Source of the DNA: Thysanoteuthis rhombus
Taxonomy: Eukaryota; Mollusca; Cephalopoda; Oegopsida; Thysanoteuthidae
Direction of reading: 5' to 3'
Length of the DNA stretch: 64,000 bases
Assembly: GCA_963457665.1 (NCBI GenBank)
Contig: OY735219.1
Span: 43,718,714-43,782,713, forward strand
In this document: one piece after another, positions 14,550 through 33,713 of the stretch
Position numbering within the stretch: the stretch's first letter is position 1
Layout: each line of letters opens with the position of its first letter
The notes under the pieces: model-generated
Seen by the model: the letters and a program-made list of their open reading frames with translations, nothing else
Database searches by the model: none
Told to the model about the DNA's origin: nothing
Translations under genes and position numbers: made by a program

Positions 14550-14706
14550 ATGTCAGCCTCAGAAGAAGAAAACGAAGCCTTTGCAGCCATTTTGTATGCT
14601 GAGCCCGGTGCTTTGGGTTTGATTGCAAATATTATGGCTGCTTTAGTAGTGGCCATAGAAAATATGCTGAATGGGAATGAATCAGCAGTGGCTCTCACTC
14701 TCTCCG
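14550..14706 (+). CDS. Gene 1 exon 1: start codon and first helix of AceTr repeat 1
   Basis: Encodes residues 1-52 plus the first base of codon 53. The acceptor for this exon is at 14489/14490, and TAA at 14499-14501 is in frame upstream, so the ATG at 14550 (G at -3) is the best start. The acidic N-terminal stretch SEEENE is followed by EPGALGL and a hydrophobic helix. Donor CCG|GTAAGC, phase 1. An opposite-strand open frame over this exon is a shadow. Confidence 0.85.
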
Positions 14707-32700: not shown

Positions 32701-33713
32701 TCTTGTAGCCTATTTTTATCTTACCAGGAAATCTCCTATAGGAATTCAGAGACAAACTTTGGAGATATTGCATGAACAGACATGAGCGTGTGTGTGTGTA
32801 TATATATCTTTTAAAAAATTCATAATCTGATAGGATTCCTGGATCTGCCTTAGATACTTAACCACCCCTTCCTTACCCCCATTGCCCACCCTTCCAGCAA
32901 AACATTCAGTACTATTATATACAATTATTATTGCTATATTCCAGTAATTTTAGCCAATTTTCGGCTGTTCTTAGGGGGAATCTAGCTACTTTCAACTTCT
33001 AAAATGGCTATAAGAATGCTGACGGTTTTTCCACACAAGCACAAAGATTTTTCCAAGTAGGCAACAATGCAAATACCTCTCCAACTTCATTATTAAAGGT
33101 AAATTAAAAAAAACAAAATGAAGCTACTTTAAAGATAAAACAGAAAATTCAATCAAATCATGAACTAATTCTTAAATTCATTTACAAATGAAAAGGGGAT
33201 AGATTTGTTTTTAGTACTGTCATTTTCATAGATGTAATACTAAATTCTGCAAGTGTAATACTGTTGCTATCTACACAGTCAACTCATCAAAAGATAATAC
33301 TTCTATCACCAGTGAAAAATTTCTCATTCAGATCCACAGCCTAAAAAGAATAGGAAAAAACATTTTGAAACCATTTTTTCACTGAATTGCATCGTTATAA
33401 AAGAAAATTTCATACTTGCTATAACAAGTTACACTGTAGGACTATCTACAGATGTAGAATATATCTTTATTCTTATAAACAAAAATAATATCAGATAAAT
33501 TCTGTATCTGCAGAGTTATTGAAAATTCAATTCAGAACTTGATATGATCTAAATTCTTTCATTTTGACAGGTGAGATCACCTTTTTCAGAATAGGATGCA
33601 CACCTCAGGAATATGTGGAGAATTTATTCAAAGAGGCTCAGGCTGAAGTCAAATCATCAACATCAAATACGATCGCCTTGGATGGGAGACCAAACAAAGC
33701 AATCAAATTTTAA
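14550..33713 (+). CDS. Triple YaaH/AceTr-like membrane domain fused to a YrdC/Sua5 domain (spliced, 862 aa)
   Basis: The spliced coding sequence joins 14550-14706, 16989-18093, 19840-20120, 20813-21010, 24739-24827, 27600-28128, 29875-29961 and 33571-33713. All introns are GT..AG and the frame is preserved at every junction. Residues about 14-205, 229-405 and 430-610 are three diverged copies of a hydrophobic, multi-helix module resembling GPR1/FUN34/YaaH (acetate or ammonia transporter) proteins. Copy 1 shows EPGALGL (family NPAPLGL) and GGFLQLLAG...GSAFIVFASLW (family GG..Q..AG...G.TAF....FW). Residues about 625-840 are a YrdC domain with PTDTVYALA (650-658), KER...KP (674-681), SSANPSG (766-772) and STVV (805-808). 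YrdC enzymes make threonylcarbamoyl-AMP from Thr, bicarbonate and ATP for tRNA t6A37. Whether this domain is catalytic, and what the membrane part moves, is inference. The upstream in-frame stop supports the ATG at 14550. Confidence 0.88.
14707..16988 (+). other. Intron 1 of gene 1
   Basis: A phase-1 GT..AG intron of 2282 bases. No additional exon, RNA gene or clear transposon is visible in it. Confidence 0.7.
16989..18093 (+). CDS. Gene 1 exon 2: rest of AceTr repeat 1, basic linker, all of repeat 2
   Basis: A large 1105-base exon encoding residues 53-421 (both end codons split). It holds the GGFLQLLAG motif, about five further hydrophobic segments of repeat 1, a lysine-rich loop (residues 208-224) and the complete second repeat starting near GMGYIGNVVPAVVMAF. 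Acceptor CTGCGTTGCAG, donor CACG|GTACGT, phase 2. Reading on past the donor meets a stop at 18116-18118, so splicing is required. Confidence 0.92.
18630..18720 (+). repeat. Dispersed repeat, second family
   Basis: This segment resembles the reverse complement of about 38990-39080. Shared landmarks in order are CTGTCCAT, GCATAACTC, GCTA, and a final ACCAAA or ACAAAT block. A further, poorer copy lies at about 39140-39220. The family is unidentified and short. Confidence 0.45.
19661..19727. repeat. (CT)n microsatellite, interrupted
   Basis: A CT-rich tract with a few CCC interruptions, about 110 bases before exon 3. Confidence 0.95.
19840..20120 (+). CDS. Gene 1 exon 3: first half of AceTr repeat 3
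   Basis: Encodes residues 421-515 (ends split). After a charged loop (about 422-442) come three hydrophobic segments, including KAYMATVYALYW (494-505). This aligns by position with SAFIVFASLW of repeat 1 and QFIIYTIFW of repeat 2. Acceptor TTTTTTTAG, donor AACG|GTAAGT, phase 1. Confidence 0.87.
20813..21010 (+). CDS. Gene 1 exon 4: middle helices of AceTr repeat 3
   Basis: Encodes residues 515-581 (ends split), almost entirely hydrophobic with two or three transmembrane segments. Acceptor TTACATAG, donor GCAG|GTAAGC. The phase-1 ends join in frame to exons 3 and 5. Confidence 0.87.
21790..22380 (-). mobile_element. Mariner-like transposase fossil
   Basis: On the minus strand a short frame reads PPYPPDVEPTTFHLFPFMK. 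It corresponds to the (P/A)PYSPDLAPSDFHLF motif around the last catalytic Asp of mariner (DD34D) transposases. The upstream part is broken by stops and frameshifts. No terminal inverted repeats could be paired, so the limits are approximate. Confidence 0.6.
22725..22838. repeat. (TA)n then (GT)n compound microsatellite
   Basis: About 55 bases of TA repeat followed by about 50 bases of GT repeat inside intron 4 of gene 1. Confidence 0.97.
23257..23337. repeat. (CA)n then (TA)n compound microsatellite
   Basis: A CA repeat of about 20 bases passing into a TA repeat of about 58 bases. Confidence 0.97.
23524..23584. repeat. (TA)n then (GT)n compound microsatellite
   Basis: A short TA tract leads into about 45 bases of GT. 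Frames with Tyr-Ile or Cys-Val repeats come from this tract and are not genes. Confidence 0.97.
24121..24400. repeat. Seven-copy 40-bp minisatellite
   Basis: Exactly seven units of 40 bases, each starting AGGGTGTTTCATCTGGTCCA and ending CCTGATTACAACTCT. Copies differ at only a few positions (TATAACC in unit 1, TTACAGCTCT in unit 3). This near-identity points to recent expansion or gene conversion. The array sits in intron 4 of gene 1, about 340 bases before exon 5. Confidence 0.98.
24739..24827 (+). CDS. Gene 1 exon 5: last helix of AceTr repeat 3
   Basis: A short exon encoding residues 581-610, with a hydrophobic start (VIALYGTFAGMING) and then LQGHLVPLGTPLLT leading to the YrdC part. Acceptor CTTGGAAG is weak in pyrimidines, though TTTCTCTTAATATCTT lies just upstream. 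Donor ACA|GTAAGT, phase 0. Reading through the donor meets a stop after about 16 codons. Confidence 0.78.
24828..27599 (+). other. Intron 5 of gene 1, containing a mariner fossil
   Basis: A phase-0 intron of 2772 bases between the last membrane exon and the YrdC exon. Apart from the mariner relic at about 26050-26910 I see no gene. The 120-codon open frame at 24945-25307 has a non-ATG start and no recognisable domain. Confidence 0.7.
26050..26910 (-). mobile_element. Mariner-like transposase fossil with one TIR-like end
   Basis: Minus-strand translation gives scattered but ordered mariner pieces: CIITDDEMW (a D-containing motif after the helix-turn-helix part), then a region like TINIDRYIATL in another frame, then LQHDNA, and finally LVPSNFHLFGSMKDELHGQ and ADFDERSIQAI. 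Frameshifts and stops interrupt it. The sequence ACGAGGGTTGCTCCGAAAGT at 26061-26080 has the look of a mariner terminal inverted repeat at the transposase 3' end. I could not find its partner. The copy is dead. Confidence 0.75.
27600..28128 (+). CDS. Gene 1 exon 6: core of the YrdC domain
   Basis: Encodes residues 611-787. The exon opens in phase 0 after TTTTTCTTGTAG and has no Met before PTDTVYALA (650-658), so this domain depends on upstream exons for its start. Conserved YrdC features are the KER...KP nucleotide and carbonate-site motif, a PGG turn, RVPD and SSANPSG. Donor CTTG|GTTTGT is slightly weak, but the next exon restores the frame and the expected C-terminal YrdC motif. Confidence 0.95.
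28129..29874 (+). other. Intron 6 of gene 1
   Basis: A phase-1 intron. It contains the longest unexplained open frame nearby (28561-29013, 150 codons), which has no recognisable domain, no splice context and AT-driven composition. I treat it as chance. Confidence 0.6.
29875..29961 (+). CDS. Gene 1 exon 7: YrdC C-terminal STVV segment
   Basis: Encodes residues 787-816 (ends split). After DSLG, the segment HKIDGMVCDG and then APSTVVNC match the conserved end of YrdC domains, whose usual form is a D-G-G turn followed by STVVD. Acceptor ATCTTTGCAG, donor GAAG|GTAAAA, phase 1. Confidence 0.9.
29962..33570 (+). other. Intron 7 of gene 1, with repeat pieces
   Basis: A phase-1 intron of 3609 bases. 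It holds a duplicated 16-bp block GTCAACTGTGACGTCA (31058-31073 and 31844-31859) and a partial unit of the 150-bp repeat family (about 32660-32790). No gene. Confidence 0.65.
31058..31859. repeat. Pair of GTGACGTCA-containing direct repeats
   Basis: GTCAACTGTGACGTCA occurs at 31058-31073 and again at 31844-31859 in the same orientation. Each contains the palindrome TGACGTCA, and the left copy has a second TGACGTCA at 31054-31061. The right copy is preceded by CCGCCATATTGTG. They may mark the ends of a decayed DNA transposon, but I could not align flanks beyond the core. Confidence 0.35.
33571..33713 (+). CDS. Gene 1 exon 8: C-terminus and stop
   Basis: Encodes residues 816-862 and the TAA stop at 33711-33713. 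EITFFRIGC corresponds to the I(L/I)R(P/E)G strand that ends YrdC domains. A short helical, then polar tail follows. Acceptor TTTTGACAG. A 3.6-kb intron separates it from exon 7. Confidence 0.87.

What the first reader, a model, noticed from the sequence alone, without database searches (positions are those of the whole stretch)
14550..33713. One protein combining three acetate-transporter-like membrane modules with a tRNA t6A-pathway YrdC domain
Eight exons splice in perfect frame into an 862-residue protein. It has about 600 residues of polytopic membrane sequence of the GPR1/FUN34/YaaH type followed by a complete YrdC/Sua5 domain. In animals the known YRDC protein is a short soluble or mitochondrial enzyme. 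I know of no described protein that joins this enzyme to a multi-helix transporter-like region. The YrdC reaction consumes bicarbonate, Thr and ATP, so coupling to a transporter or sensor of small carboxylates or bicarbonate is an attractive but untested idea.
Basis: partly seen in the sequence, partly recalled or inferred. Interest (0 to 1): 0.88.

Follow-up and report, generated by a model that had tools for sequence, protein, structure and literature searches.

The report
Mollusc transporter–enzyme fusion, ATO–YrdC family
A mollusc (probably squid-like) gene joins three acetate-transporter-like membrane units to an enzyme domain used in tRNA modification; the same design was described in non-mammal vertebrates in 2026, so the architecture is known, but this genome carries two very different copies of it, which points to an old origin in animals.

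Summary
In detail: eight exons at 14550-33713 (+) splice in frame through GT/AG sites into 862 residues, with 18 hydrophobic peaks (6+6+6) and a complete YrdC domain. Pfam lists no YaaH match. NCBIfam gives acetate-transporter models as best hits for modules 1 and 2, below cut-off; module 3 is supported only by profiles shared with a second copy. A two-gene artefact is unlikely: exon 6 has no Met before two catalytic motifs, and a very divergent second copy on the same chromosome has the same order. New here: a mollusc member, a paralogue pair, seven of seven TC-AMP-synthase residues kept in the window copy but one lost in the paralogue, and the pore-constriction Phe replaced by Asn in all three modules. 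Most likely it is a membrane carboxylate transporter carrying a cytosolic carbamoyl-adenylate-forming enzyme; the coupling is inferred. Another YrdC gene, probably the ordinary YRDC, lies elsewhere in the genome.

The parts
14550..14706 (+). exon 1: start codon and first membrane helix of module 1 (AEPGALGL in place of NPAPLGL)
   Evidence: alignments
16989..18093 (+). exon 2: rest of module 1 (to about 17446) and all of module 2
19840..20120 (+). exon 3: module 3, first part
20813..21010 (+). exon 4: module 3, middle
24739..24827 (+). exon 5: end of module 3 (HLVPLG where SatP has TVLPIG)
27600..28128 (+). exon 6: linker and most of the YrdC domain (PTDT, KxR and SxN motifs); first in-frame Met is residue 707
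29875..29961 (+). exon 7: YrdC, STVV motif
33571..33713 (+). exon 8: end of YrdC (FFRIG) and stop codon
27687..33593 (+). span of the PF01300 match (residues 640-823), interrupted by introns 6 and 7; coordinates worked out
34027..34032 (+). AATAAA polyadenylation-type signal after the stop codon

Best explanation
It is a mollusc member of the animal ATO-YrdC kind: three acetate-uptake-transporter (AceTr/SatP) modules in one chain (about 18 helices) followed by a YrdC/TsaC-type domain. Shown: gene structure, homology of the parts, catalytic residues in place, a second copy with the same order of parts. Inferred: two chains (six modules) form a SatP-like six-pore ring with the YrdC domains in the cytosol; each pore passes a small carboxylate or related anion, with changed selectivity because the constriction Phe is Asn in all three modules; the tethered YrdC domain uses ATP and (bi)carbonate, with threonine or a similar substrate, to form an adenylated carbamate beside the pore, so that entry of the anion is linked to its use or sensing. 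Bulk tRNA t6A is probably not its main job, because another YrdC gene, probably the ordinary YRDC, is present. The confidence is a blend: about 0.9 for the identity, about 0.4 for the mechanism.
For: Gene model. YrdC. Modules: NCBIfam best hits for modules 1 and 2. A 13-sequence bacterial AceTr profile (built) gives window modules 1 and 2 19.4 and 31.9 bits and paralogue module 3 26.2 bits, each reached by 0 of 1000 shuffles; the best of 48 hydrophobic E. coli pieces from 15 ORFs scores 5.1. hhalign with both copies aligned: modules 1+2 against AceTr probability 98.3, E 9.6e-14; module 3 against AceTr 90.1, E 1.9e-7; reversed alignments 0.0 and 0.3; best of 48 single decoys 5.7, best of 60 decoy pairs 3.9. 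The module-3 profile of the two copies scores 13 of 13 bacterial AceTr proteins at 11.3-26.5 bits and window modules 1 and 2 at 20.7 and 17.2 bits, 0 of 1000 shuffles as high for these two. Join: no Met in exon 6 before PTDT and KxR; second copy with the same order and an in-frame splice from the membrane exon to YrdC. Catalysis: T33, K56xR58, S143xN145, S181 and R195 of P. abyssi Sua5 (list from PMC10321239, passages) are all matched. Published parallel and six-domain-ring proposal: PMC13316224 section 14.
Against: Pfam lists no YaaH match, and the PF01184 search of the own genome does not list this gene. The paralogue membrane exon has no NCBIfam hit and only a sub-threshold unrelated Pfam hit. 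Window module 3 alone is at noise: 5.3 bits, 6 of 1000 shuffles as high, against 5.1 for the best decoy, and 2.6 bits with 53 of 1000 shuffles against a profile of modules 1+2 only. Paralogue module 1 (partial) scores 0.2 bits (295 of 1000) and module 2 7.9 bits (3 of 1000). Single-sequence hhalign gives only 10.3 for window module 1 and 0.3 for module 3, against 83.0 for module 2. NPAPLGL, whose mutation impairs yeast Ato1 according to PMC13316224 section 8, is altered in all modules that cover it, so transport may be lost or changed. TIGR00057 falls below its cut-off. No structure, expression or assay.
Confidence: 0.65

Rival explanations
1. The membrane part no longer transports; it is an anchor or receptor that holds or regulates a TC-AMP synthase, for example sensing carboxylate, bicarbonate or pH. 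(Shares the identity part of the best explanation.)
For: NPAPLGL is altered in every module that covers it, and the position of SatP F17 is Asn in all three window modules; seven of seven catalytic residues are in place in the window copy.
Against: Six hydrophobic peaks per module, the TM3 Trp in 6 of 6 modules and SatP-like module endings are kept, as expected if fold and pore still matter.
Confidence: 0.25
2. It is an extra t6A enzyme: the membrane part only places ordinary TC-AMP synthesis at a membrane or organelle. (Overlaps with the first rival.)
For: KxR/SxN, used to tell functional YrdC from YciO proteins (PMC3223725, passages), is present in the window copy; TIGR00057 is its best NCBIfam model, 114.8 bits against a cut-off of 123.2.
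Against: Another YrdC gene on C25 has exon pieces with KxR and SxN; the paralogue has lost the KxR Arg, which fits poorly with an essential t6A role for both copies.
Confidence: 0.2
3. Two neighbouring genes wrongly joined: a membrane gene (exons 1-5) and a YrdC gene (exons 6-8).
For: No RNA evidence; the frame of exon 5 runs 48 nt into the intron, stop codon included, ending at 24875; AATAAA or ATTAAA at 25303, 25857 and 27250 in intron 5. In the paralogue the first YrdC exon has an ATG as its third codon, so that copy alone does not exclude a separate YrdC gene.
Against: In-frame phase-0 join with canonical sites; no Met in exon 6 before PTDT and KxR; second copy with the same order of parts, its membrane exon reading on through a linker and splicing in frame to YrdC; same architecture published in vertebrates.
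Confidence: 0.06

Closest known systems
Vertebrate ATO proteins with C-terminal Sua5/YciO/YrdC (PMC13316224, iScience 2026)
   Same: About 900 residues, three Gpr1/Fun34/YaaH modules of six helices, C-terminal YrdC domain
   Different: [quoted passage not shown] here a mollusc has two divergent copies with YrdC. Direct comparison with the vertebrate sequences was not possible.
SatP/YaaH, E. coli acetate/succinate:H+ symporter (AceTr family)
   Same: Six-helix module, TM3 Trp, similar module endings; weak, nearly full-length similarity for modules 1 and 2
   Different: One module per chain; NPAPLGL and Phe at the constriction, against E-P-x-x-x-G (modules 1 and 2) and Asn here
YrdC/TsaC/Sua5 threonylcarbamoyl-AMP synthases
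   Same: Complete PF01300 domain, KxR/SxN and the active-site Thr, Ser and Arg; Ser before SxN as in the TsaC type
   Different: No SUA5 domain; joined to a transporter-like part; about 28% identical to the other YrdC gene of the same genome (approximate)
HypF and TobZ (YrdC domain fused to a Kae1-like domain; PMC9654439, passages)
   Same: YrdC domain in a larger protein, making a carbamoyl-adenylate for a dedicated use
   Different: The partner is a carbamoyl-transferring domain, not a transporter

Membership tests
ATO-YrdC fusion (animal ATO, PMC13316224) | three six-helix Gpr1/Fun34/YaaH modules in tandem | tested here: met
   6+6+6 hydrophobic peaks; NCBIfam for modules 1 and 2; profile-profile for module 3 together with the paralogue. 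Window module 3 alone is at noise level (6 of 1000 shuffles as high).
ATO-YrdC fusion (animal ATO, PMC13316224) | C-terminal Sua5/YciO/YrdC domain, PF01300 above 25 bits | tested here: met
   115.8 bits
ATO-YrdC fusion (animal ATO, PMC13316224) | PF01184 score above 0 bits (domain criterion of the paper) | tested here: inconclusive
   no Pfam match listed at E up to 10, but scores just above 0 bits would have larger E-values and not be listed. The gene is below the Pfam cut-off, so it would probably be missing from a set of entries annotated with PF01184.
ATO-YrdC fusion (animal ATO, PMC13316224) | groups with vertebrate sequences in a tree | not testable with these tools
   no vertebrate proteome is held; the PDB search with the YrdC part listed 10 sequences, none of them such a fusion by name
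AceTr/SatP acetate transporters | NPAPLGL motif at TM1 | tested here: not met
   window modules read AEPGALGL, AEPMGMGY and a more divergent third
AceTr/SatP acetate transporters | SY[F]GFW motif in TM3 | tested here: inconclusive
   Trp in 6 of 6 modules; Y72 position F, Y, Y in the window; Ser replaced in 6 of 6
AceTr/SatP acetate transporters | H+-coupled carboxylate transport | not testable with these tools
   needs an assay
TC-AMP synthase (TsaC/YrdC/Sua5) | KxR/SxN tetrad plus active-site Thr, Ser, Arg | tested here: met
   KER, SAN, PTDT, STVV and FFRIG in the window copy; the paralogue lacks the KxR Arg
TC-AMP synthase (TsaC/YrdC/Sua5) | NCBIfam TIGR00057 equivalog cut-off of 123.2 bits | tested here: not met
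   112.2 bits for the whole protein, 114.8 for the domain
TC-AMP synthase (TsaC/YrdC/Sua5) | TC-AMP formation or t6A complementation | not testable with these tools
   needs an assay

The most novel reading that the evidence does not exclude
The two paralogues form a heteromeric six-module ring in which one subunit carries a live YrdC enzyme and the other an inactivated, regulatory YrdC domain. The ring would be a channel-enzyme that takes up a small carboxylate or bicarbonate and captures it at once as an acyl- or carbamoyl-adenylate: a group-translocation-like uptake system in animals, with chemistry outside tRNA modification.
Probability: 0.1. Interest if true: 0.85.

Novelty: new member of a known kind. 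Interest (0 to 1): 0.45.

Why it matters
The function of the ATO-YrdC fusion is unknown even in vertebrates. A mollusc genome with two very different copies suggests that the fusion predates the split of protostomes and vertebrates, rather than being a vertebrate invention or a horizontal gain, and it supplies a natural contrast (intact against broken catalytic motif, Asn against Phe in the pore) that makes the link between transport and adenylation directly testable.

Tried and rejected
Rejected as unlikely: two-gene artefact (see rivals; its odds were raised from 0.04 to 0.06 when I re-read and saw an early ATG in the first YrdC exon of the paralogue). Rejected: pseudogene (no stop, 7 of 7 introns GT/AG, seven of seven catalytic residues kept). 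Not resolved: origin of the fused YrdC. In a 37-row tree the window and paralogue group together (100/99) on a long stem; a clade of both with the other YrdC gene of this genome is not rejected (p-AU 0.396); long branches are flagged. Led nowhere: PF01184 on the own genome (8 matches from 15 candidates, none over the cut-off, best E 1.46, none on this contig); PDB search with module 1 (0 hits at E up to 10); viral contigs with exon 6 (10 pattern matches, 0 relatives); the first exon or exons of the paralogue (forward strand of C22:20480000-20520660: best E 0.46 and 6.8, so not found); NCBIfam and Pfam on the paralogue membrane exon; a search for more copies with that exon (only itself at E up to 0.01; it did not even list the window gene, so further divergent copies could be missed). 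Counting notes: the paralogue and C25 YrdC sequences were joined by eye from exon pieces; the C25 gene was not modelled and its ends are rough, and one residue of the paralogue differs from the exact splice model, so the identities 47.1% (96/204), 28.0% (51/182) and 29.5% (56/190) are approximate. In one search the paralogue exon was read in the wrong frame; one search corrects it. In one search one donor was off by a base; one search corrects it. Module 3 motif positions depend on a gapped alignment. The SatP constriction numbering F17/Y72/L131 is recalled; the letters at those positions were checked.
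Full report
What was checked. Seven of seven introns have GT and AG ends, the frame is open, and the product is 862 residues. The YrdC domain is complete by Pfam (E 2e-33, profile positions 2-177 of 178) and is assembled from exons 6, 7 and 8, so two of the seven splices are supported by the domain itself.

The organism. The window lies on contig C22 of a 2.73-Gb assembly in 514 contigs. The genome has 52 matches to a haemocyanin domain (PF14830) that rang in none of the 14 prokaryote control genomes; that this model is mollusc-specific is recalled. 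Two of these ORFs were compared with the PDB and match haemocyanins. For one of them the best single-unit chain is 4yd9_C (800 bits; squid, recalled) ahead of 1js8_A (755 bits; octopus, recalled). The 11 contigs seen through loci, numbered between C3 and C36, are 48.8 to 91.7 Mb long. This suggests a squid-like cephalopod; the species was not identified.

The membrane half. Hydropathy gives six peaks in each of three modules (a stricter scan was less regular). Pfam lists none of them. NCBIfam gives acetate-uptake models as best hits for module 1 (E 2.4e-4) and module 2 (E 8.4e-4 and 3.1e-3), below curated cut-offs. A profile of 13 bacterial AceTr proteins (E. coli SatP, 7 close relatives, 5 more distant) gives 19.4, 31.9 and 5.3 bits for window modules 1-3 and 0.2 (partial), 7.9 and 26.2 for paralogue modules 1-3; shuffles as high: 0, 0, 6, 295, 3 and 0 of 1000. 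The best of 48 hydrophobic E. coli pieces scores 5.1. Single-sequence hhalign against AceTr gives probabilities 10.3, 83.0 and 0.3 for window modules 1-3 and 0.1, 4.6 and 84.9 for the paralogue. With both copies aligned it gives 98.3 (E 9.6e-14) for modules 1+2 and 90.1 (E 1.9e-7) for module 3, while the controls (2 reversed alignments, 48 single decoys, 60 decoy pairs) reach at most 5.7. So modules 1 and 2 are AceTr-like by themselves, and module 3 through the paralogue.

The join. Exon 5 ends and exon 6 begins in phase 0. Exon 6 has its first Met at residue 707, after PTDT (650) and KxR (674), so it cannot open a working YrdC gene with an ATG of its own. A genome search with the protein found all eight exons, a second locus at C22:20527462-20529708, and one exon of a YrdC gene on C25. 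The second locus, read, holds a 1731-nt exon (C22:20520654-20522384) with about two thirds of module 1, modules 2 and 3 and a linker, then four further exons that complete a YrdC domain (PF01300 E 3e-29), all in frame with canonical ends. The intron after the membrane exon lies at the edge of the domain: the Pfam match starts just behind it, the TIGR00057 match five residues before it. The membrane part is 21.8% identical to the window protein over residues 62-609 and YrdC about 47%. The same order of parts therefore exists twice, 23 Mb apart. One caution: the first YrdC exon of the paralogue has an early in-frame ATG, so that copy alone does not prove its own fusion; and its first exon or exons were not found.

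The enzyme half. PMC10321239 (passages) lists T33, K56xR58, S143xN145, S181 and R195 of Pyrococcus abyssi Sua5 as active-site residues, required for TC-AMP synthesis in the yeast protein. The window copy has all seven; the paralogue has Leu for R58 and keeps the other six. The residue before SxN is Ser in the window and Thr in the paralogue, the TsaC type. PMC3223725 (passages) uses KxR/SxN to separate functional YrdC from YciO proteins. Both copies fall below the TIGR00057 cut-off (114.8 and 92.7 against 123.2 bits). In a tree the two copies group together with high support on a long stem; their relation to the YrdC gene on C25 is unresolved. That C25 gene is taken as the ordinary YRDC because pieces of it carry PTDT, KxR, SxN and a Ser-Thr-Val motif; it was not fully modelled.

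The pore. Aligned to SatP, the constriction Phe (F17) is Asn in all three window modules and Phe in the two paralogue modules that cover it; Y72 is F, Y, Y and L131 is I, Y, F in the window; the Asn of NPAPLGL is Glu in all three window modules by the same alignment. The third module is gapped there and less certain. The repeated change suggests altered selectivity rather than random decay; this is inference.

Prior art. PMC13316224 (abstract, passages, and sections 8, 14, 15, 29 and 32 seen; supplements and figures not seen) describes vertebrate ATO proteins of about 900 residues with three Gpr1/Fun34/YaaH domains and, in almost all, a C-terminal Sua5/YciO/YrdC domain, in every major vertebrate lineage except mammals; it proposes a dimer forming a six-domain ring and suggests that the fusion could couple import to assimilation. 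[quoted passage not shown] No other paper on such a fusion was seen among the titles listed by my searches (20 of 630 listed; 0; 20 of 47; 20 of 43; 1 of 1, the same paper); the held library is not complete. The architecture is therefore known. The mollusc pair adds a protostome with the full design twice, in multi-exon genes, which favours common descent; a tree with vertebrate sequences is needed to show it.

How it probably works. Shown: architecture, homology, motif state. From established knowledge: SatP-like proteins are proton-coupled small-carboxylate transporters that form hexamers; YrdC proteins condense threonine, bicarbonate and ATP. Inferred: a two-chain ring with six pores, cytosolic YrdC domains, and a link between the passing anion and adenylate formation. 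Another YrdC gene makes a main role in t6A unlikely.

Verdict. A real gene, correctly read from the sequence, of an already described but functionally unknown kind; new in a mollusc and in having a divergent sister copy.

Noticed in passing
L116 9557 onward into L117 (C22:20529556-20530944 of the own genome): The last exon of the paralogue ends the YrdC domain and goes on into a polar, probably disordered tail of about 400 residues that the window copy lacks.
   Followed up: partly
C25:56607734-56625492 of the own genome: Nine haemocyanin-domain matches with the same score (97.0 bits), about 2.18 kb apart: a tandem array of near-identical functional units, or an assembly artefact.
   Followed up: no
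C32 near 26.2 Mb and 48.0-48.2 Mb of the own genome: Several haemocyanin gene clusters, those near 48 Mb on both strands.
   Followed up: no
window 22715-22850 and 23250-23590: Simple TA and TG/CA repeat runs inside intron 4, giving long ORFs without meaning.
   Followed up: no
window 34100-64000: Only one ORF of at least 110 aa (59011-59472, no Pfam match at E up to 0.1); no tRNA found and no Rfam family at gathering score anywhere in the window: no second gene recognised by these tests.
   Followed up: partly
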